From positions 1,369,735 through 1,433,734 of the forward strand of contig NW_011887292.1 of the NCBI RefSeq assembly GCF_000151315.2: a stretch of DNA of 64,000 nt, given 5' to 3'. Below the pieces are notes generated by a model. The model had not been told where the DNA came from and ran no database searches. It saw nothing but the letters and a program-made list of their open reading frames with translations. The first letter of the stretch is position 1. Every line of letters begins with the position of its first letter. Positions 37,378-58,072 of the stretch are shown piece by piece. The translations under genes and the position numbers were made by a program. The stretch comes from Capsaspora owczarzaki ATCC 30864 (Eukaryota; Opisthokonta; Filasterea).

Positions 37378-40300
37378 TTAAGCGTGCGATTCAGCGTGGG
37401 GTTCCTTCGCCCCCGCCGCCGCCGCCGCCGCCTCCGCCTCCTGTGGTTGGGAAGGAGAAGCATCTGCAGAAGGCTCGGCCTGCGCGCCTTCTGGATTGGC
37501 CCCCTTCGCTCCCCATGGATAGTACGACCCGAGCACGTACGAAGCAATGCGATCGGCGCCGTTGACAATCTTTTTGACCGAGTCGGGTAGAACAGCAATG
37601 ATGGGCGAGGTCGGCTGGTTGGGATCGGCCTCGCTTGCCTGCGGTGGTGGCCAGTTCATCTGCAACTTCTTTGGCGTGGTGCGGGCGGGGGCAGGCGATG
37701 CCGCCGGGGAGGTCTCGATGGCCACACCCAGACCAGGCGTCTCGAACGATCGCTTGAGCTTGCCAATCGAAATGGGGTTTGCCGAAACGACAGAGCCGGG
37801 CGTAGTAGCAGCGGTCGAGGCCTGCGAAGGCGACGCTGGAGGTTGTGCAGACGAAGGAGGCGTTTGGGGTGCCATTTGTGGAGCTGCCGCAGATTTCTGG
37901 GGCTCGGCAGTGTTCTTGCTGGCCACGACTACCTCCGCTTTGGCTGCTGCGGTCGCGGTCGCGGTCGCGGTCGGGACAGGTGTCACTTCTGGCTCTTCGC
38001 AGTCCTCATTCTCCTCGGCAAGGTTGGCCAAACTGCCCGAGACAGGACTGTGGGAGGTGAGGCCATGCGAGGGGACTGGAGAAACGGACGGGGACAGGAC
38101 AGGGCTCAAGTTCAATGGCGAGCGGTTGACAGTCGGAGACAAGAACTTGGGTGCAGCTGCCGCTGCTGCTGCTGCTGGCGAGGAGTCAACCGGATCTTCG
38201 TCCTCGGCAGACTCGCCAATCATCTCCAGAGCATCAGCATTGCTGTCGAGAGCATTGGCATCTGCAGAATCGCCTGTCGGATGAGCATTCTCGGAGCCTT
38301 CAAAGTCAGTCCGCGCGTCTTCAAACGACTGCAGTTGAGCCGTTTCATCCTCGACGTCAGAGTAGGCACTCGACAGGCGGTTTGCACTGAGGAAGCCATC
38401 TTCGTTCTCTGAATCGTCGGAATCGGCAGCATCGTCCAGGCCAGACACGTTCAAACTCGAGTCCAAGTTCTGCGTCGGGCTACTGGAGACCTCCTCGTCC
38501 TCGCCCGATTCTTCGAGAATAACCGCAAATGCGGCCTCGGCAGCAGCTTCCGCGTTCGAGTCGCCTCCCATCTGCTCGTAGAGCTGGCTGGCACGCACAA
38601 GGCAGCGACGAAGGGCCGGGGTCGGAACACGAACCGTCTCGCTTTGGCTTTCGGGGGCGGGAGCGATCGCCGACATGACTCCGATCGAAAAGCTTTTGCG
38701 CAAGTAGACCAGACTGCCCATTTCACGAAGACGAGAGCGCTGACGGCGACGATCGGCAATCTCACTCTCCTCCTCTCGGCGCCACTCTGGGAAGAGCAAG
38801 TCAAAGTCCTCAATCATCAGTTGGATGAGCATGCACTCGCAGCGACTGAGCGACTGGGCCAACGCGGCAGAGCCGCCAAGTGTGTTGAGGGACAGGCTCG
38901 AGTCGCTCAGTGACGATGAAGAGGTGCCGAGTGCAGACAGGGACATGAGCGAACCAGACGACGGAATCGACGCGGGCGAATCGGCAGAAGGAGCCGTAGG
39001 GCTGGCGGCGGCAGCAGCAGCAGCAGCAGCGACGGCCGCGGCAGCGCTATTGATCGCATGGACGGTGGGCATCACTTCATCGAGGAGCTTGGCCAGCATG
39101 GGAGAGGCAGCATCGCGAGCGCGCAAAAAGTTGGGCGCCCACACAATGGCCAGATTCGAGGATGCCATGCTGGTCTTTTCATGGAAGCCGTTCATTAACG
39201 ACAAGTGACGAAGCAAGTAGCGGAGCGTGGCCAAATGGGCCGGTGGCAGGCGCAACATGAGGTGTTGCAGGGCGGTGACACGCTGCAGCTGAGCTGGAAT
39301 GCCAACGCACCGCAAAAAGCTCTCGTGCTGGGCGGTGGGAATCAGCGGTGTTGGGAGCTCGCGAAGATAGAGCTTGAGAAGGGAGGAGACACAGTGAATA
39401 TCGCTCTGCGGGATGTCATCCAGGTTGACCTTGTCTTCGTTGGCGTCAAAGGCAAAGCGCAACTTTTGCACACGGCTCGCAGTGCCCGAAACACGGTAAA
39501 TGCCCTTGACTTTTCCGAGACGCTCGATGGCATGGACACACTTTTGGATGACAATGGGGACGGTGGGCAGATACTGCAGCTGCGCGACGCCCTGCCACGA
39601 GTAGGCAGCAGGGGCGAGCTGGAGACGCGGGGACGACGTTCCTGCCGCTGTTGTCGGAGAGGATGCAATGGCAACGGAGGGGGACTTGTTGGCCGCGCCC
39701 TCCAACGCTGCTGGCTGGAAGGACTCTTGCAGCACCTCGTTCGCCAGCCGATGGACGTCCGGGTTTTCAAGATAGCGCTGAAGCAGCTCCGAGAGATCAG
39801 CCCCAAAGACGGCATCCTTAAAGATACCCGATCGTCGCAGATGGACAAGAGACGGCGGAGGGTAGGCCACATTCTGCTCCGAATGGCGGTCGTGGAAGAA
39901 GGACCGAAGGAAGGTGACAATTTTGAGCTTGCCGGATGGACGCGGTGAGCCCGACGCAGTTGGGAATGGAGGATAGGAGACACCGCCACCGAGGCTTCCA
40001 CCGCTTGGACTGGAGGCCGTTGGGGACGACGCCTGCTCCATCAAGCTGCTGTCGAGAATGTTCGCACCAGACCAGGTGCCCGATCGGCGGTTTTGGGCCT
40101 TTTCAGAGACGGACAAGTGCTGGATGGAAGGCGACAGGGACGGCGGGCTGGCGGAGGAGGAGTTGGACATTGGCGATGGCGGGCGTGGGTCGGACGCGGA
40201 GGCCGGCGTAATCACCTGGACGCAGTCGCGAGGGAAGAATCCAACCATCTCACTCGCTCCCTTAAAGCCGCGCCACCAGGGTGACTCTTGCGTCGACGGC

Positions 40301-42363
40301 ATGTCGACAATCGAAATGACTTCGCCGGCTTGCAGGGACAGCTCGTCCTCCTCCTGGCCTTCGTACGGGGCAATGACCATGCCAACCGCAACGATTCGCA
40401 GCTTGGGGAAGCGAGCGACGAGCATTTCGTTCGCATTGGCGTTGCTGGGAGCTTGAGGCTCGGGCGTGAGGCTGTCCGAAAACGTGACCTTTGGAACACC
40501 GGCCCCACCCGCGCCCGCACCAGCGCCAGTGCCCGCGCCGTCATCCGACTCGGACGAAACACTGCGCGCTGGAGTGGTGCGTGAGCGCTCGCGCTCCAGT
40601 TGCAGCCGGCGACGCTCACGGAGATTTTTGCGGTACAGCTGCAGCTTGGTCAGGTCGAGCACATTCGAGCCGCGAAGAAGGTTGAGCGACTGCAGGTGGC
40701 GAACGAGCGACGTCGGAATCAGCGTGCCCAGACCCCGCTTGGCCGGCTTGCCTCCTGGAGTGATGTCAAGCCAAGACAGCACAACGCTGCACGTCAGGCA
40801 GCCCGCCGCAATGGTCGCAAGCCGCTTCAAGTACGTCGCAAGCAAGGCGATGGTGGGTTCGACCACGAGTTGCACGGGAATGAGGGAGAGCGGCGTGCCT
40901 GCCGCAACTTGCACGGCCGCCTGACGACTCACAACGGCCGGAGCAATGTCCGACTCGATACATGCCAGCTGGCTGTACTTGCGGTTGAAAATGCAGCGAT
41001 GAAGTTGCTCGTCGATGGCAGAAAAGTCTGCCCAGCTGCGCTGCAACGTCCACGACCGGCGGCCGCTCGTAACACGCACGTCGAAGGTGACTGCGTCGAG
41101 AACCTTCCGAACATGCGCTTCTGTAAAAGGCTTTGCTGCCACGGAAGAAGGTGCTGATGTTGCAGCCGAGGGGTCTGTCGAGGTCGTGGTGGTGGTGGTG
41201 GTGGTGGCGGTGGAAATGGTGGTGGAAATTGCGTCAGGTTGTGCAGTGAGCACGGCGGGCAGACTGGCAGCCACGGCATCAAAGGCAAACTGGTGGTTGA
41301 TGATCTGCACTGAAAAGTTTGGCTTGAACTTGACAAAGTCGTAGTGGAAGTGACGCGCCTTGGACTCCTCCGCGCCTCCGCCTGCCGCACTGGCATTGAG
41401 TGAGCTGGATGAGGACGAGCGCGAGAAGGTGCCTGAGAGCCGTGCCTTAATGCTAATCCGGGAACCCGAGGTTGGAGCGTTGGTCGGGAAATCGGGCGAG
41501 TGCTCCCCACCCGCACCCGCCGCGATACCGTCCATGCGATCACGGTACGATACGGGAGCTGACGGTGCACCGACCGCGCCAGCAGTGGCGACACCCGACA
41601 CGGCGGCGAGCGCAGCAGAGTGCTTGAGCTTCATTCCGCCACGAATGGCCGCAAGCAACTCTGACCTGGGACTGACTTTCTTGACGGTCGCCGAGCGCGC
41701 CATCAGCAGCGGCGAGGACAGGTCGTGGGTGGCATCGACGGGCAGTCTACGCAGCTTTTGCTGGGCGCGCTGGCCCTCGAGGTCGTGCATGAGCCCCGAC
41801 GGCAGGCGCCGGAATGGCTGCTTGACTACATCTCCTGCTCCTCCCGCATTGCCAGCTGAGCCTGCCGGGTATGCCAGCGGCGACGTTGGGCGGACGATCG
41901 CATTGGCGCTTCCAGTCGGTCGCGGCGACATGAGAGCGCGTGCTGGCTGTGCGTTTGAGACGGACGGAGCCGCGCTTGTGACGATGGAAGCGGACTGAGA
42001 CAGCGACGGTGGAGCGGCAGTAGCAGAAAGAGGAGACTGCTGGGGTTGCTGCTGCTGCTGCTGCGGCTGCGCTTCGTGGGCCACCTGAGACTGGGGTTGC
42101 TGCTGCTGCTGCTGCTGGGGTTGCTGCTGCTGCTGGGGTTGCTGCTGCTGGGCGGGCAAAGGCAAAGTCGCAGCTTGTGTTTGCGGTTGGAGAATGACCG
42201 CAGCAGTTGGAATGGCGCTCGAATTGGCAATACCATCGCTATCGCTGGCAGAGACGACCGGCGCCTCGCTCGATGCTGCAGCATGGGCTGCTGTGTCGGT
42301 GGCACCAGGCGGCTGCTGCTCTGGAGCGCTGCTCGCTGCCCCGCGGGCCTCACTGGCATCCAT
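37378..42363 (-). CDS. PX-SH3-RhoGAP protein, ARHGAP32/33 type (single exon)
   Basis: GTPase-activating protein for Rho-family GTPases. One uninterrupted frame of 1661 aa, unusual here since almost every neighbour is split. The N-terminus is Gln/Pro/Ala-rich with CAG-encoded Gln runs. A PX-like domain lies near residues 340-490 (KFKPNFSVQIINHQFAF; WTLQRSWADFSAIDEQLHR), an SH3 domain near 650-718 (AVGMVIAPYEGQEEDELSLQ; PWWRGFKGASEMVGFFPRD) and a RhoGAP domain near 850-1080 with the arginine finger in GIYRVSGTASRVQKLRFAFD, then SLLKLYLRELPTPLIP and SNLAIVWAPNFLR. The GAP domain is interrupted by a disordered Ala/Ser insert. The C-terminal 500 residues are acidic and Ser/Pro-rich. PX-SH3-RhoGAP order is that of animal ARHGAP32/33; the GTPase target cannot be read. 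Confidence 0.93.
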   Translation of the reverse strand: MDASEARGAASSAPEQQPPGATDTAAHAAASSEAPVVSASDSDGIANSSAIPTAAVILQPQTQAATLPLPAQQQQPQQQQQPQQQQQQQPQSQVAHEAQPQQQQQQPQQSPLSATAAPPSLSQSASIVTSAAPSVSNAQPARALMSPRPTGSANAIVRPTSPLAYPAGSAGNAGGAGDVVKQPFRRLPSGLMHDLEGQRAQQKLRRLPVDATHDLSSPLLMARSATVKKVSPRSELLAAIRGGMKLKHSAALAAVSGVATAGAVGAPSAPVSYRDRMDGIAAGAGGEHSPDFPTNAPTSGSRISIKARLSGTFSRSSSSSSLNASAAGGGAEESKARHFHYDFVKFKPNFSVQIINHQFAFDAVAASLPAVLTAQPDAISTTISTATTTTTTTTSTDPSAATSAPSSVAAKPFTEAHVRKVLDAVTFDVRVTSGRRSWTLQRSWADFSAIDEQLHRCIFNRKYSQLACIESDIAPAVVSRQAAVQVAAGTPLSLIPVQLVVEPTIALLATYLKRLATIAAGCLTCSVVLSWLDITPGGKPAKRGLGTLIPTSLVRHLQSLNLLRGSNVLDLTKLQLYRKNLRERRRLQLERERSRTTPARSVSSESDDGAGTGAGAGAGGAGVPKVTFSDSLTPEPQAPSNANANEMLVARFPKLRIVAVGMVIAPYEGQEEDELSLQAGEVISIVDMPSTQESPWWRGFKGASEMVGFFPRDCVQVITPASASDPRPPSPMSNSSSASPPSLSPSIQHLSVSEKAQNRRSGTWSGANILDSSLMEQASSPTASSPSGGSLGGGVSYPPFPTASGSPRPSGKLKIVTFLRSFFHDRHSEQNVAYPPPSLVHLRRSGIFKDAVFGADLSELLQRYLENPDVHRLANEVLQESFQPAALEGAANKSPSVAIASSPTTAAGTSSPRLQLAPAAYSWQGVAQLQYLPTVPIVIQKCVHAIERLGKVKGIYRVSGTASRVQKLRFAFDANEDKVNLDDIPQSDIHCVSSLLKLYLRELPTPLIPTAQHESFLRCVGIPAQLQRVTALQHLMLRLPPAHLATLRYLLRHLSLMNGFHEKTSMASSNLAIVWAPNFLRARDAASPMLAKLLDEVMPTVHAINSAAAAVAAAAAAAAASPTAPSADSPASIPSSGSLMSLSALGTSSSSLSDSSLSLNTLGGSAALAQSLSRCECMLIQLMIEDFDLLFPEWRREEESEIADRRRQRSRLREMGSLVYLRKSFSIGVMSAIAPAPESQSETVRVPTPALRRCLVRASQLYEQMGGDSNAEAAAEAAFAVILEESGEDEEVSSSPTQNLDSSLNVSGLDDAADSDDSENEDGFLSANRLSSAYSDVEDETAQLQSFEDARTDFEGSENAHPTGDSADANALDSNADALEMIGESAEDEDPVDSSPAAAAAAAAPKFLSPTVNRSPLNLSPVLSPSVSPVPSHGLTSHSPVSGSLANLAEENEDCEEPEVTPVPTATATATAAAKAEVVVASKNTAEPQKSAAAPQMAPQTPPSSAQPPASPSQASTAATTPGSVVSANPISIGKLKRSFETPGLGVAIETSPAASPAPARTTPKKLQMNWPPPQASEADPNQPTSPIIAVLPDSVKKIVNGADRIASYVLGSYYPWGAKGANPEGAQAEPSADASPSQPQEAEAAAAAAGAKEPHAESHA
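42047..42152 (-). repeat. CAG/Gln repeat tract in the RhoGAP gene
   Basis: Interrupted CTG runs (plus strand) encode several Gln blocks spaced by Pro/Gln near residues 70-106. Slippage would change length without shifting frame. Confidence 0.85.
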
Positions 42364-51852: not shown

Positions 51853-53483
51853 TCATACGCGCAAAGCACCTACATCCTCAATGTCATCGTCGTCGGGAGA
51901 CACCTCAGCGGGGCTCGCCGGGAGCAGGGGGCTGCTATCACCTTCCTCGACCGCATCACGGCTCTTTCGGGCAGGACTTGCTTCGGGGACGGGTATCAAG
52001 TTGTACAACGCAAGACCAAAGACGACCAGGGCCAGCGAGACGAAATAGACCCAGCTGAGCTTGTACCCAAACAAAAAGAGACCAAATAGGAGCGTGTAAA
52101 CATCGGCCGTCAAAAACGACAGGTTCATGAAGGTGGCCGACGACAAGACCAGCAAGGTTGGCACCAGCGAGTAGAGCGAGAATAAGCATGCCGAGAAGAG
52201 CAAAACCAGGAGTGCTGTTCATGAAACAATCACAACGACCACAAACAGCGACGAGTAAGCAATCATCATCAGCACCTTTCACAGATCAGAAAACAAAAGA
52301 GCGCGCGATGCGAGGCGATTGCGTACGAATTTGCCAAGCCGAGCCGACAGTAGAAAGCTCGTCGCGCTCAAAGATTGCCCTGTGTCATGGTGATCATCGT
52401 TGGAAACAAGCAACGTTTCGTGAGGGAGAAATCGTGTCAAGCCAGCTCACTTTCACACACCCCCCCCCGAAAAAACAGGGTGGACACGGAATCATTCAGC
52501 TATTTCAACGTACACTTGAACAGCACTAATGACGGTTCCAAAGAGACCCAGCATGGTCAGAAATTCGTAACGATTTTGCGTCTTGACGAGAAATTCTTGC
52601 GAAACATTCGACACTGCGTACAGCAAGGCGCCGCAGAGAGTGAGAATGTCACCCACGGTTGCGTTGCTAGCTGCAAGTGTCCAAAAAAACAACGGGAACA
52701 CGCATGGACATGTGAGAAAACCTGCGCTTTTAGAGTAGTGCAGCAATCAAATCGAAAAGAAGAGTACAAAACCATACCACTCGACGTATCGTTGCCGCCA
52801 AGATCAGAAGCAAAAAGCCCTCCAATGCCCGCTAGGCAGATTGCGACTCCGAGGACATGCAGCGGCCGGAATCGAACACGAAGAAAGTACCATGACAAAG
52901 CCATGACGCACGGGATGGTGAAGCAATCCAGCAACTGAACACTTGTGATGGTCGTGTACTCGTATGCGCGAACAATGAGATAGTTTGCCTCAACGTCCAC
53001 GAAGGCGAGTAGAACATAGCGCCACCAGCGCTGAGCCAGCGCCCTCTTGACCGCGACGGCGAAGGTTGGTGCGGTTTCAGCAGCGGTCGCGTCGGTGGCG
53101 CTCGCCGACCGAGCTTGTCGCCGGGTGTCGTATGCCCACATGGCACCGTAGACGACACAAAGCAAGAGGTAGTTGAGGAGGGACTGCGTGGTTGGGAAAC
53201 TGACCCCGTAATCGCTGACGAGCAGCTGGCTCGAGACAGCCGTTCCGGTGAGCATCATGGCCAAGAACTGGCCCAGCAACAGCGGTCGCCATCCCTGAAG
53301 GACGCGCATACAGTAGTTCGAGCACAGCGCGCTTAGTCGGGCGGAACGAGATCGACCATGCGAGGGGGGCAGCTCTGATGTAACATGTGGTGAATGAACC
53401 GAGTTGGTGCTCCATGCGCGCCCGCTGGTTGCACGGTCGTCGGCAGGGGGAGGCGGTGTGCCCTTGTTGGATAAAAGCGACAT
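51853..53483 (-). CDS. SLC35F1/F2-type solute carrier
   Basis: Multi-pass transporter of the drug/metabolite superfamily. Exons 53483-52778, 52670-52514, 52379-52327 and 52214-51853 join in phase to 425 aa; the 53-nt third exon (AIFERDELSTVGSAWQI) is needed to keep phase and restores the short loop present in human SLC35F2. Hydrophilic N-terminus, then about ten membrane segments with family signatures: LLLGQFLAMMLTGTAVSSQL, LAFVDVEANYLIVRAYEYTT, SVQLLDCFTIPCVMALSWYF, GALLYAVSNVSQEFLVKTQN and SFLTADVYTLLFGLFLFGYK. The C-terminus is acidic with SSPLLPASP. The DVEANYxIVRAYxYTTxTSVQLLDCF block is diagnostic of SLC35F1/F2/F6-like proteins. The substrate of this branch is not readable from sequence. 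Confidence 0.94.
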
Positions 53484-54065
53484 GCGTGAGAGAGACCCGG
53501 GAGAGAGCGCGAGTAGAGATAACGGTTGGTTGGCCGTGTGATGGCTACGATCTGCGTGGATTGGCGGGAAGAATTTCGCTGGCTCGGTTGTGAGTGAATG
53601 ACTTTTGACAAATCTGAAAAAATCAGAGACTGAAAGCTCCCACACAAAAAGAGAGCGAGGATGTGGAGAAATGTACAAGAGCGACGACGGGTGAAACAAA
53701 CAGTTTGGTGGAACACCTCTCTACAGAAACAGCACCGCTCATTCCGACTTCGATGCCAATGACAAGAAACAAATTCAATGGTTCGTATTACAGCGAACAA
53801 CGAGGAGAGCAACGACGTACGAGACAAATTACATGTGCAAACAGACAACCAAAGTACAACCAGGAAGGCTGGGAAGCAAAGAACGGGAAGGGAAGAGAGA
53901 GAGAAAAAAAAACAGCTCGCTGTTTTCGGAAAGTAGAAAATTGAAACTGACGCAGCGCTGCTGAGGGTTGCAGCGCAAACGGGGGGGGGGGAAGAGAAAC
54001 ACGAAATCAACACACATAAAACAAAACAAAAAAAAAAAGAACACCGCGCAACGTCGCCAATCGCT
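53484..54065. other. intergenic region SLC35F / dystroglycan-like
   Basis: 582 bp between two minus-strand genes: SLC35F 5' flank and the 3' flank of the dystroglycan-like gene. A-rich near 53900-54040, with a G run at 53981-53990. No gene supported. Confidence 0.5.
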
Positions 54066-57000
54066 TTAGATCAGGAACTCCTTGTTGTTTCCAAGCGTTG
54101 AGAGGCTTGGCGAGGCCGAGGAGACTGGCGCGGCGGCCGTTGGCCGCTTAACTTCAGGAGCGGGCTCCATTGTGTCGTAGTTTGGCGGGGATTGGTAGGG
54201 TGGTGGCACACGCGCGCGCTCAGCGCCGGAAGGTGCAGCAGCAGTTGCCGAAGGACGGGCACTGGCAGCGGAAGCAGCCGGCGCTTCAGTCCGTGGCAGA
54301 GTGCTGGATGGGGGATAGACAACAGCCTTGACTGCCTTTTCGCCCAGGTAGGGCTCATCGGGACGGTAGGATCCACGACGGCCACGAGCGCGGTAAACAA
54401 TACCCAAAATCACCAAGGCGACAAAGAGGACGACAAAGATCGGGACAAGAATGGCGACCAAGTGATCATCGTCGTCATCTGAGCTGGAAGCGCTGGAGCC
54501 TGCCGTGGCAGTGGAGGTTGAGGTGCCAGCGGGTGTGGCCGAGCTGGCGACGACATCGGACGACGGATTGACAACCTCGGTGCTGGCGGACGGAGCGACA
54601 GTCTCAGATGGGTTGGAGGTCTCGGAAGGGTTGGAGGTCTCCGAAGGGTTGGAGGTCTCGGAAGGGCTGGAGGTCTCGACGTCAGTGGAAGCAGGATTGT
54701 TAGTCGCCGTGACAGTCGCAGTGTTGAGCGGCTCGTCCGTAATCACGGAGGGGGGGGTGTTGGATGAGGCATCAACTGCAGTGTTGGTTCCAGTAACCAC
54801 CTCAGTGGGAGTTGGGGTTGCGATGCTGACATCAGAGGGCGAGGCGAAGCCGAAGGCAATAATGGGGAAGCCCGTCTCGGAGGTGAGGCCCTCCAAGCCA
54901 AGCAAGTACATGGTCTGCCAGTAGCCCAACGCTTGGTTGAGGTCGTTGTCGCTGGTCACAAAGTGAACAATCGTGGAGCCAGAAATCAACTCCCAGATGA
55001 ACAGATCGTCCATCGAGACCGAGAACAGACGAGCCAGCTGGGCAGCAAGGTTGACTTGATCGGTTGGCGTGAAATCGGCAAGCGGGTAGTCGGCGGTGAT
55101 CGAGAGCAGATAGTTCGGGACCAATCCGTTGGGAACAACATCATAGAAGAAAGTGGTGGAGGCCACGTTTCCGTTGTCGTCAATCGCGAGCAAGCGAATC
55201 GCGCCCGAAAAAGCAGTCGAGTTGGCAGGAGCGAGACCGTCGAAAACACCCGAAGTAGGGTCGTAGGAGATCCATGTAGGCAAGTCCAGGAAAGGCGGGC
55301 TGAAAGCATAGACGATGAAGGCAAACGAGCTTGCAAAGGTGTACTGGGGAATATGGAAGTGGAACGGACGGCCAGCAACAATCGTCAGCGCAGGGACAGT
55401 GTTGTTCACCCACGGTCCCAGGCGTGCCCGAGAAGGTAGGCGTCGGAGTTCCAGTGAACGTAGCCGAGGAGACCTCGGGAGTGGCAGACGAAGCTTCAGG
55501 GGTGGCGGACGAAGCTTCAGGGGTGGCGGACGAAGCTTCAGGGGTGGCGGACGAAGCTTCAGGGGTGGCGGACGAAGCTTCAGGGGTGGCGGACGAAGCT
55601 TCAGGGGTGGCAGATGAGATGTCAGGGGTGGCAGATGAGACCTCGGGAGTGGCAGATGAGACCTCGGGAGTGGCAGATGAGACCTCGGGGGTAGCGGACG
55701 AAACCTCGGGCGTAGCGGAGGAGACCTCGGGAGTGGCAGACGAGGGTGTTGGCGTGGCGCTAGATTCCACAATGGGGCGGCTAGAGGAGACAATAGGGCG
55801 GCTGGAGGACTCGACGACGGGACGGCTCGAAGACTCGACAACAGGACGAGAAGAAGACTCGACAACGGGACGACTTGAAGACTCGACAACAGGGCGGCTT
55901 GAAGACTCGACAACAGGGCGGCTTGAAGACTCGACAACAGGGCGGCTTGAAGACTCGACCACGGGGCGCGAAGAAGATTCGACAACTGGGCGCGAAGAAG
56001 ATTCGACAACTGGGCGGGTGGATGACTCAACCACAGGGCGGGTGGATGACTCAACCACAGGGCGGGTGGATGACTCAACCACAGGGCGGGTCGATGACTC
56101 GACGACAGGTCGAGATGACGATTCAACAACAGGGCGAGTGGACGATTCGACAACAGGGCGAGTGGACGATTCGACAACAGGACGAGTGGACGATGCCTCA
56201 GGGGTGGCAGACGAGACCTCGGGAGTAGCAGAAGACGGCTCGGGGGTAGCAGAAGACGGCTCGGGGGTAGCAGAAGAGACCTCGGGAGTCGCGGAGGAGA
56301 CCTCAGGAGTGGCAGACGAGACCTCAGGAGTGGCAGACGAGACCTCGGGAGTGGCAGACGAGACCTCAGGAGTCGCGGAGGAGACCTCAGGAGTGGCAGA
56401 CGAGACCTCAGGAGTGGCAGACGAAACCTCAGGAGTGGCAGACGAAACCTCAGGAGTAGCGGAGGAGACCTCGGAGTGGCAGAAGAGACCTCGGGAGTCG
56501 CGGAGGAGACCTCAGGAGTGGCAGACGAGACCTCAGGAGTGGCAGACGAGACCTCAGGAGTGGCAGACGAGACCTCAGGAGTGGCAGACGAGACCTCAGG
56601 AGTGGCAGACGAGACCTCAGGAGTGGCAGACGAAACCTCGGGAGTGGCAGACGAAACCTCGGGAGTCGCGGAGGAAGACGTTGCAGACGAGGCGTAGCTG
56701 ACGAAGGAGTAGCAGACGAAGGAGTAGCCGACGAAGGAGTAGCCGACGAAGGGGTGACGGACGGAGTAGGAGGGCGTAGCCGACGAAGGGGTGACGGACG
56801 GAGTAGCCGACGAAGGGGTTGCCGACGAGGGCGTAGCCGACGAAGGAGTAGCCGACGAAGGAGTAGCCGACGAAGGAGTAGCCGACGAAGGGGTGACGGA
56901 CGGAGTAGCCGACGAGGGCGTAGCCGACGAAGGGGTGACGGACGGAGTAGCCGACGAAGGGGTTGCCGACGAGGGCGTAGCCGACGAAGGAGTAGCCGAC

Positions 57001-57806
57001 GAAGGAGTAGCCGAAGAAGGAGTAGCCGAAGAAGGGGTCACGGACGGAGTAGCCGACGAGGGGGTTGCAGACGAAGGAGTGACGGAGGGGGTTGCCGACG
57101 AGGGGGTTGCAGACGAAGGAGTGACGGAGGGGGTTGCCGACGAAGTTTGCTGGGGGCAGGGAATAACTCGGCACTCATTGTTGAGGGTCAGACTGCGAAG
57201 CGAAACACCGGAACGAATGGAGTCGCCGCACGCCCCGGTGTTGGTGCAATCATAACCGGCATTGGCAGTCATGCGCAGACGGTAAGCAGAGTACGCGACA
57301 TCGTTGGTGACGCAGAAGGAGCGAGTTTCGTCCGTCTGCCAGTTGAACTCGGCACGGTAGTCCAAGATGGTCCAGGTGCCGCCCAAATAGCCCTCAAACG
57401 TCCAGACACCGGGCGATTGCTGGTTGCACTCGGAGCCAAAGCCGTCGCACGGCCTGGCGGTGTCCGATGAAACAACAGTAATCGAGTAGCTATTGACGAG
57501 AGTTGGTGTGTCACCGGCATACGTGTAGATGAGACTGATTGGGTCATCGGGTGTCGGAGTCAGATACGACACGAAGAAGGACTCGCCAGTGGCATCGTGG
57601 TTGAAGGCCTTCGAGGCATCGTTGTACATGGGATCGACTTCACCAGGGGCTTCAGCGTCAGTGGACCCCGTGCCTGGGTTGAGTGTGGTGTCGATGGATG
57701 TGCCCGGAACGCAGTCGGCAGAAGCCAGACGAGCCAATGCCAAAACCAGCAGCCCTGCAAGCACGAAGCGGCTTGGAGTGGCACGCGTGATAGTCGAACG
57801 CGCCAT
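54066..57806 (-). CDS. dystroglycan-like transmembrane mucin with F5/8-type N-terminal domain
   Basis: Type I surface protein, about 1246 aa in one open frame. A signal peptide (FVLAGLLVLALARLASA) is followed by a Cys-containing domain to about residue 215 that resembles a discoidin/F5/8 fold (WTFEGYLGGTWTILDYR; YSAYRLRMTANAGY). A huge Ser/Thr/Pro/Ala tandem array (about 222-778; SSATPSV, SSATPEV, VESS-x-RPV units) is mucin-like. A cadherin-like CADG-type domain follows (LPTWISYDPTSGVFDGLAP; LLAIDDNGNVASTTFFYDV), then a segment like the dystroglycan MAT-NU module (LLSITADYPLADFTPTDQVN; LAAQLARLFSVSMDDLFIWE), a Ser/Thr stalk, an acidic patch and one membrane helix (VAILVPIFVVLFVALVILGI). The cytosolic tail has VPPPYQSPPNYD, two PPxY-type WW-binding motifs as in beta-dystroglycan. 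An upstream in-frame Met lies at 57854. The repeat array changes register internally (see findings). Confidence 0.7.
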   Translation of the reverse strand: MARSTITRATPSRFVLAGLLVLALARLASADCVPGTSIDTTLNPGTGSTDAEAPGEVDPMYNDASKAFNHDATGESFFVSYLTPTPDDPISLIYTYAGDTPTLVNSYSITVVSSDTARPCDGFGSECNQQSPGVWTFEGYLGGTWTILDYRAEFNWQTDETRSFCVTNDVAYSAYRLRMTANAGYDCTNTGACGDSIRSGVSLRSLTLNNECRVIPCPQQTSSATPSVTPSSATPSSATPSVTPSSATPSSATPSVTPSSATPSSATPSSATPSSATPSSATPSSATPSVTPSSATPSSATPSVTPSSATPSSATPSSATPSSATPSSATPSSATPSVTPSSATPSYSVRHPFVGYSFVGYSFVCYSFVSYASSATSSSATPEVSSATPEVSSATPEVSSATPEVSSATPEVSSATPEVSSATPEVSSATPEVSSATPEVSSATPRSPPLLLRFRLPLLRFRLPLLRSRLPLLRSPPRLLRSRLPLPRSRLPLLRSRLPLLRSPPRLPRSLLLPPSRLLLPPSRLLLLPRSRLPPLRHRPLVLLSNRPLALLSNRPLALLLNRHLDLSSSHRPALWLSHPPALWLSHPPALWLSHPPAQLSNLLRAQLSNLLRAPWSSLQAALLSSLQAALLSSLQAALLSSLQVVPLSSLLLVLLSSLRAVPSSSPPAALLSPLAAPLWNLAPRQHPRLPLPRSPPLRPRFRPLPPRSHLPLPRSHLPLPRSHLPPLTSHLPPLKLRPPPLKLRPPPLKLRPPPLKLRPPPLKLRPPPLKLRLPLPRSPRLRSLELRRLPSRARLGPWVNNTVPALTIVAGRPFHFHIPQYTFASSFAFIVYAFSPPFLDLPTWISYDPTSGVFDGLAPANSTAFSGAIRLLAIDDNGNVASTTFFYDVVPNGLVPNYLLSITADYPLADFTPTDQVNLAAQLARLFSVSMDDLFIWELISGSTIVHFVTSDNDLNQALGYWQTMYLLGLEGLTSETGFPIIAFGFASPSDVSIATPTPTEVVTGTNTAVDASSNTPPSVITDEPLNTATVTATNNPASTDVETSSPSETSNPSETSNPSETSNPSETVAPSASTEVVNPSSDVVASSATPAGTSTSTATAGSSASSSDDDDDHLVAILVPIFVVLFVALVILGIVYRARGRRGSYRPDEPYLGEKAVKAVVYPPSSTLPRTEAPAASAASARPSATAAAPSGAERARVPPPYQSPPNYDTMEPAPEVKRPTAAAPVSSASPSLSTLGNNKEFLI
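54599..54672 (-). repeat. 18-bp tandem repeat in the stalk
   Basis: Four near-identical 18-bp units encode Ser-Asn/Ser-Pro-Ser-Glu-Thr in the juxtamembrane stalk of the dystroglycan-like protein. Confidence 0.85.
55473..57150 (-). repeat. 1.7-kb coding tandem repeat array
   Basis: The array has three zones of related short units. At 57150-56700, 15-bp and longer units encode SSATP and SSATPSVTP. At 56690-56200, 21-bp units encode SSATPEV. At 56190-55780, 24-bp units encode VESSTRPV or VESSSRPV, followed by a return to 21-bp SSATPEV and SSATPEA units down to 55473. On the minus strand more than one frame stays open through the array, and a plus-strand frame is open from 55331 to 56701. The 15/21/24-bp periods indicate growth by unequal exchange or slippage. 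Confidence 0.9.
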
Positions 57807-58072
57807 TGGTGTCAAGAACTGCCAAGGGCCCATCAAAAAACAAACACATATCATTCATCGATTGAGTGAGTACATGGCGAGCACGACAAGACACCCGCTC
57901 GAACAGCTCTCATTCATAGGGCACTTTTTCCATTGCGGTGGAACATGTGAGCTTGCGGTGAGAGCGATCGGCATGTTGAACAAACCCAGCCCAAAAACCA
58001 CTGGTTTTTTTTTTTCTTATTATTATTATTATTAATATTTGAGGTCGCAGTTGTTTCCAAAAAGCACGCTGC

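What the first reader, a model, noticed from the sequence alone, without database searches (positions are those of the whole stretch)
54066..57806. Dystroglycan-like architecture in a probably unicellular organism
Seen: signal peptide, mucin-like Ser/Thr array, cadherin-like (CADG-type) domain, a MAT-NU-like module, one membrane helix and a tail with two PPxY-type motifs (PPPY and PPNY). Known: animal dystroglycan has a mucin region, CADG and MAT-NU modules, a membrane helix and C-terminal PPxY motifs bound by dystrophin WW domains. Inference: this may be a dystroglycan relative or a convergent matrix receptor. The N-terminal F5/8-like, possibly glycan-binding, domain is not part of animal dystroglycan, and the WW ligands suggest a cytoskeletal or Hippo-type partner.
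Basis: partly seen in the sequence, partly recalled or inferred. Interest (0 to 1): 0.75.

Follow-up and report, generated by a model that had tools for sequence, protein, structure and literature searches.

The report
Dystroglycan-like adhesion receptor in Capsaspora
A single-celled relative of animals carries surface proteins built like animal dystroglycan, and its genome also holds dystrophin-type and sarcoglycan-type proteins, which suggests that parts of this adhesion system are older than animals.

Summary
The gene is real and its membrane-proximal half is a distant homologue of dystroglycan (DG). The genome is very probably Capsaspora owczarzaki: a published 100-nt coWts arm matches 100/100, though two coYki sequences were not found. 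The window protein has two paralogues; all three share an IG/CADG domain, a SEA-like (MAT_NU) domain with GST[IV]V at the DG maturation-site position, a membrane helix and [LP]PxY motifs. A profile of the three finds alpha-DG (2e-8) and beta-DG (1.5e-5) best in PDB; the reversed control finds no DG. The C11 paralogue has the DG order IG1, S6-like, mucin, IG2, MAT_NU, helix, tail. The genome also encodes a dystrophin-type WW-EF-EF-ZZ module (9.6e-52), a sarcoglycan-like protein, and GT49 and PMT genes. A 2015 study reported no DG, dystrophin or sarcoglycan there. Against: a SEA-only profile finds no PDB hit, DAG1 stays below cut-off, F5/8 is unsupported, and much of the mucin array is out of frame. 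Function is inferred.

The parts
54066..57806 (-). DG-like gene as given in the finding (the ORF extends to 57854)
57717..57806 (-). signal peptide (30 residues, ending ...ALARLASA)
   Evidence: hydropathy 1.98; boundary by eye
57171..57716 (-). Cys-rich N-terminal domain shared with paralogue L002/L026; no Pfam family
56474..57170 (-). Ser/Thr/Pro/Ala repeats in the ORF frame, with an excursion to another frame at about 56775-56690
55420..56473 (-). mucin-like repeats (SSATPEV, SSRPVVE types) whose Ser/Thr reading is out of frame with the ORF
   Evidence: third-position bias 22/26, 28/37, 45/65
55122..55415 (-). IG/CADG domain
54834..55121 (-). SEA-like (MAT_NU-like) domain
   Evidence: negative:
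54975..54980 (-). Gly-Ser of GSTIV, at the position of the DG maturation site
   Evidence: invariant in three paralogues, aligned with GS of beta-DG; cleavage not tested
54468..54833 (-). Ser/Thr/Pro stalk, in frame
54393..54461 (-). membrane helix, followed by RARGRRG
   Evidence: hydropathy 3.44
54195..54206 (-). PPPY motif
54177..54188 (-). PPNY motif

Best explanation
The gene encodes a type I membrane receptor of a three-member Capsaspora family homologous to animal dystroglycan. Shown by sequence: an IG/CADG domain followed by a SEA-like domain with a conserved Gly-Ser at the DG maturation-site position, one membrane helix, and a tail with WW-binding motifs. Inferred: the SEA-like domain cuts itself at Gly-Ser, leaving a mucin-bearing outer subunit held on a membrane subunit; PMT and GT49 enzymes glycosylate the mucin part; the outer part binds matrix or a neighbouring cell; the PPxY/LPxY tail binds the WW-EF-EF-ZZ dystrophin-type protein, which may reach actin through CH and I/LWEQ-like parts; a gamma/delta-sarcoglycan-like protein may join the complex. 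In the window protein the IG1-S6 pair of DG is replaced by another N-terminal domain, so it is a DG-like paralogue; the C11 paralogue is closest to a full DG.
For: Single-sequence PDB search: DG 4 of 5 hits, best E 0.008. L002 ectodomain alone: one hit, beta-DG, through the Gly-Ser site, E 0.044. Three-paralogue profile: alpha-DG 2e-8, beta-DG 1.5e-5, 8 of 12 hits DG. Four-module profile: alpha-DG 7e-16, beta-DG 2.9e-8, 8 of 19 hits DG. Reversed profile: 7 hits, none DG, best E 0.088. SEA part against the beta-DG segment: 9.6 bits, 0 of 3000 shuffles reach it; 14.0 bits without the window sequence, 0 of 3000. C11 paralogue: N-terminal IG matches alpha-DG at 1.1e-5, 7 of 8 hits DG. WW-EF-EF-ZZ: dystrophin 9.6e-52. 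Sarcoglycan_1 57.4 bits over cut-off 32.5.
Confidence: 0.75

Rival explanations
1. The extracellular core is homologous to DG, but the tail works with other WW proteins: the PPxY/LPxY motifs recruit NEDD4-type ligases or Hippo WW proteins and mainly control endocytosis or signalling.
For: 31 WW matches at E up to 0.001 in the genome, among them four in one 1146-aa frame on C2 with a HECT domain match downstream. LPxY/PPxY motifs are general WW ligands (general knowledge).
Against: A dystrophin-type WW-EF-EF-ZZ protein is present, and the end of the C11 tail aligns weakly with the C-terminus of DAG1 (12.3 bits, below cut-off).
Confidence: 0.3
2. Convergence: a matrix or cell-cell receptor assembled from common parts (cadherin-like IG, mucin, SEA-like domain, membrane helix, PPxY tail) without descent from the DG ancestor.
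For: IG domains of a bacterial adhesin also match; SEA alone finds nothing in PDB; N-terminal domain of the window protein is not that of DG.
Against: DG is the best hit in four searches with different inputs; alignment runs through the Gly-Ser site; a paralogue has both IG-ferredoxin modules around a mucin region.
Confidence: 0.1
3. The window copy is decaying: indels in its repeat array break the reading frame and only the paralogues work.
For: Ser/Thr reading leaves the ORF frame for about 1 kb and for a shorter stretch.
Against: No stop interrupts the 1262-aa frame; the IG-SEA core, helix and PPxY motifs are intact. Repeats are common places for assembly errors (general knowledge).
Confidence: 0.12

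Closest known systems
Animal dystroglycan (DAG1)
   Same: IG2 plus SEA-like MAT_NU module with Gly-Ser, mucin region, one membrane helix, PPxY tail; in the C11 paralogue also IG1 and an S6-like segment in DG order
   Different: Low sequence similarity, below the DAG1 cut-off; the window protein has a Cys-rich domain in place of IG1-S6; three paralogues; many LPxY motifs in the paralogues
Dystrophin WW-EF-EF-ZZ (DG-binding) module
   Same: Joined Capsaspora exons match dystrophin over residues 14-335, 9.6e-52; four Pfam domains over cut-off
   Different: By the hand-made exon model it starts next to the WW domain; a CH domain lies downstream on the same strand, not upstream. Spectrin repeats were not searched for
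Gamma/delta-sarcoglycan
   Same: Sarcoglycan_1 over cut-off; PDB delta 2.1e-8, gamma 2.6e-8; 6 of 9 hits are sarcoglycans
   Different: The PDB match is concentrated on the membrane helix and what follows (residues 27-115); shared C-terminal cysteines are by my recall of the animal sequences, not by a call
SraP serine-rich bacterial adhesin
   Same: Cadherin-like IG domains, 4.4e-9 with the four-module profile
   Different: The match covers profile positions 44-109 of 204 only, that is the IG part

Membership tests
Dystroglycan (window protein) | IG2/CADG domain next to a MAT_NU/SEA-like domain | tested here: met
   Profile aligned to beta-DG over positions 3-160 of 199; shuffles 0 of 3000. 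SEA-only PDB search negative
Dystroglycan (window protein) | Gly-Ser maturation site in MAT_NU | tested here: met
   Sequence present and aligned; self-cleavage itself not tested
Dystroglycan (window protein) | IG1-S6 N-terminal pair | tested here: not met
   Other Cys-rich domain instead. PMC4582122 (passages) says this region varies strongly among animal DGs. Hence filed as DG-like, not as a dystroglycan
Dystroglycan (window protein) | Mucin-like region | tested here: inconclusive
   Present, but partly out of the ORF frame
Dystroglycan (window protein) | One membrane helix and PPxY tail | tested here: met
Dystroglycan (window protein) | Pfam DAG1 gathering score | tested here: not met
   13.9 bits of 23.3
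Dystroglycan (C11 paralogue) | Order IG1, S6, mucin, IG2, MAT_NU, helix, PPxY tail | tested here: met
   S6 by position and alignment only
Dystroglycan (C11 paralogue) | Pfam DAG1 gathering score | tested here: not met
   12.3 bits for the tail piece; no DAG1 match for the whole ORF at E up to 1
Dystroglycan | Laminin binding through glycan on the mucin region | not testable with these tools
   GT49 and PMT genes present
Dystroglycan | Groups with animal DGs in a tree | not tested
   No set of animal DG sequences at hand
Dystrophin | WW-EF-EF-ZZ module | tested here: met
Dystrophin | N-terminal CH pair and spectrin repeats | not tested
   One CH domain lies on the other side of the module; no spectrin search was made
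Gamma/delta-sarcoglycan | Sarcoglycan_1 domain over cut-off with a membrane helix near the N-terminus | tested here: met
   57.4 of 32.5 bits; match through the helix

The most novel reading that the evidence does not exclude
A working dystrophin-glycoprotein-like complex (DG-like receptor with a self-cleaving SEA domain, dystrophin-type linker, sarcoglycan-like subunit, glycosylating enzymes) exists in a unicellular filasterean and predates animals; animals inherited it and adapted it to basement membranes.
Probability: 0.45. Interest if true: 0.95.

Novelty: new variant of a known kind. Interest (0 to 1): 0.84.

Why it matters
PMC4582122 (passages, section 23) places dystroglycan and dystrophin within animals and sarcoglycan in cnidarians and bilaterians. 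If these homologues hold, the receptor, its cytoplasmic linker module and an accessory subunit are older than animals. That paper also says that POMK, B4GAT1 and LARGE1 occur in C. owczarzaki and must have other targets in unicellular organisms; the DG-like mucins are candidate targets. Gene disruption in Capsaspora is published (PMC9170242, PMC10959527; passages seen), so a role in adhesion or aggregation can be tested directly.

Full report
Organism. The window lies in G000, 27.46 Mb in 29 contigs. A 100-nt coWts targeting arm printed in PMC10959527 (passage) matches contig C1 at 100/100, E 9e-46. Two coYki sequences from PMC9170242 (passage) were not found. I take the organism to be Capsaspora owczarzaki, a unicellular filasterean (general knowledge); the missing coYki is unexplained.

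The gene. On the minus strand, 54066-57854 is one ORF of 1262 residues. It reads: signal peptide, Cys-rich domain, Ser/Thr/Pro repeats, IG/CADG domain, SEA-like domain, Ser/Thr stalk, membrane helix (hydropathy 3.44), basic residues, and a tail with PPPY and PPNY. The repeat array is not in one frame: from about 56473 to 55420 the Ser/Thr reading lies in another frame, and differences between repeat units fall on third positions of that frame (22 of 26, 28 of 37, 45 of 65). The paralogues do not show this: their repeats and IG domain share one frame.

Paralogues. The C-terminal half finds 12 places: itself, L002 about 70 kb away on the same contig (E 9.3e-33), L003 on C11 (E 8.0e-4), and nine weaker ones not followed up. 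Reverse searches recover the window gene (4.9e-16 from L002; 6.1e-5 from L003). Gly-Ser-Thr and the following Val of GST[IV]V are invariant in the three. The tails of the paralogues hold five [LP]PxY motifs each (0 of 20,000 shuffles reach this); the motif class was chosen after seeing the tails.

Relation to dystroglycan. The window sequence alone gives DG as 4 of 5 PDB hits, best E 0.008. L002 alone gives one hit, beta-DG, aligned through the Gly-Ser site, E 0.044. L003 alone gives none. The profile of the three gives alpha-DG 2e-8 and beta-DG 1.5e-5; 8 of 12 hits are DG, among them the top five. Adding the N-terminal module of the C11 paralogue gives alpha-DG 7e-16 and beta-DG 2.9e-8; 8 of 19 hits are DG, and a bacterial adhesin scores 4.4e-9 over the IG part. 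The DG entries are a few proteins in several structures, not independent hits. The reversed profile has 7 hits, none DG, best E 0.088. The SEA part alone finds nothing in PDB; scored directly against the beta-DG segment it gives 9.6 bits against at most 7.5 in 3000 shuffles, and 14.0 against 5.4 without the window sequence. That segment was chosen after it had aligned, so this test is lenient.

A fuller dystroglycan. The C11 paralogue is a 1549-residue ORF with a signal peptide, an IG1-like domain (alpha-DG 1.1e-5, best over IG1; 7 of 8 hits DG), an S6-like segment by position and alignment only, a long mucin region, IG2, SEA with CGSTIV, a membrane helix and the tail. The end of its tail aligns weakly with the C-terminus of DAG1 (12.3 bits, below cut-off).

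Possible partners. A gene on C5, joined by eye from ten exons whose nine introns are GT-AG with consistent phases, encodes WW-EF-EF-ZZ. Dystrophin is the best PDB hit, 9.6e-52 over residues 14-335, and WW, EF-hand_2, EF-hand_3 and ZZ pass their cut-offs. A CH domain (3.6e-8) and an I/LWEQ-like stretch (1.1e-5, 26.0 of 27.5 bits) lie downstream on the same strand and may belong to it. On C7 a 273-residue protein matches Sarcoglycan_1 (57.4 of 32.5 bits) and delta- and gamma-sarcoglycan (2.1e-8, 2.6e-8, mainly around the membrane helix). GT49 (the LARGE/B4GAT1 type) lies in three places and PMT in four. WW domains are common in this genome (31 matches), so other partners for the tails are possible.

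Literature. PMC4582122 (passages; [quoted passage not shown] owczarzaki, and sarcoglycan in cnidarians but not other basal animals. PMC8061703 (one passage) places DG at the onset of Metazoa. PMC5395295 (passages) reports dystrophin in unicellular protists. So the WW-EF-EF-ZZ protein is probably the cysteine-rich protein already noted; the DG-like family and the sarcoglycan-like protein appear to be the new parts, as far as the searches reach.

Verdict. Homology of the IG-SEA core to dystroglycan is likely. The window protein is a DG-like paralogue with a different N-terminal domain. Self-cleavage, glycosylation, ligand and linkage to actin are inferences that can be tested.

Noticed in passing
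L061 3267-5700, minus strand (C5:585266-587699): Dystrophin-type WW-EF-EF-ZZ module split over ten exons, with CH and I/LWEQ-like stretches downstream; its WW is cut by an intron and is missing from the WW list.
   Followed up: partly
L064 1288-2109, minus strand (C7, inside 1173400-1174300): Sarcoglycan_1 protein of 273 residues, intronless in this reading, in a genome reported to lack sarcoglycan.
   Followed up: partly
L026 (C1:1491500-1499500): Second paralogue has a signal peptide, repeated SSTLPPxxSSFF motifs, two copies of the Cys-rich domain each interrupted by an intron, then mucin, IG, SEA, helix and tail.
   Followed up: partly
G000 whole genome: Two published coYki sequences are not found although a coWts arm matches perfectly.
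   Followed up: partly
window 37381-42363, minus strand: 1661-aa ORF with SH3, RhoGAP and a weak WH2 match.
   Followed up: no
window 52557-53699, minus strand: SLC35F-type transporter gene just downstream of the DG-like gene, on the same strand.
   Followed up: no
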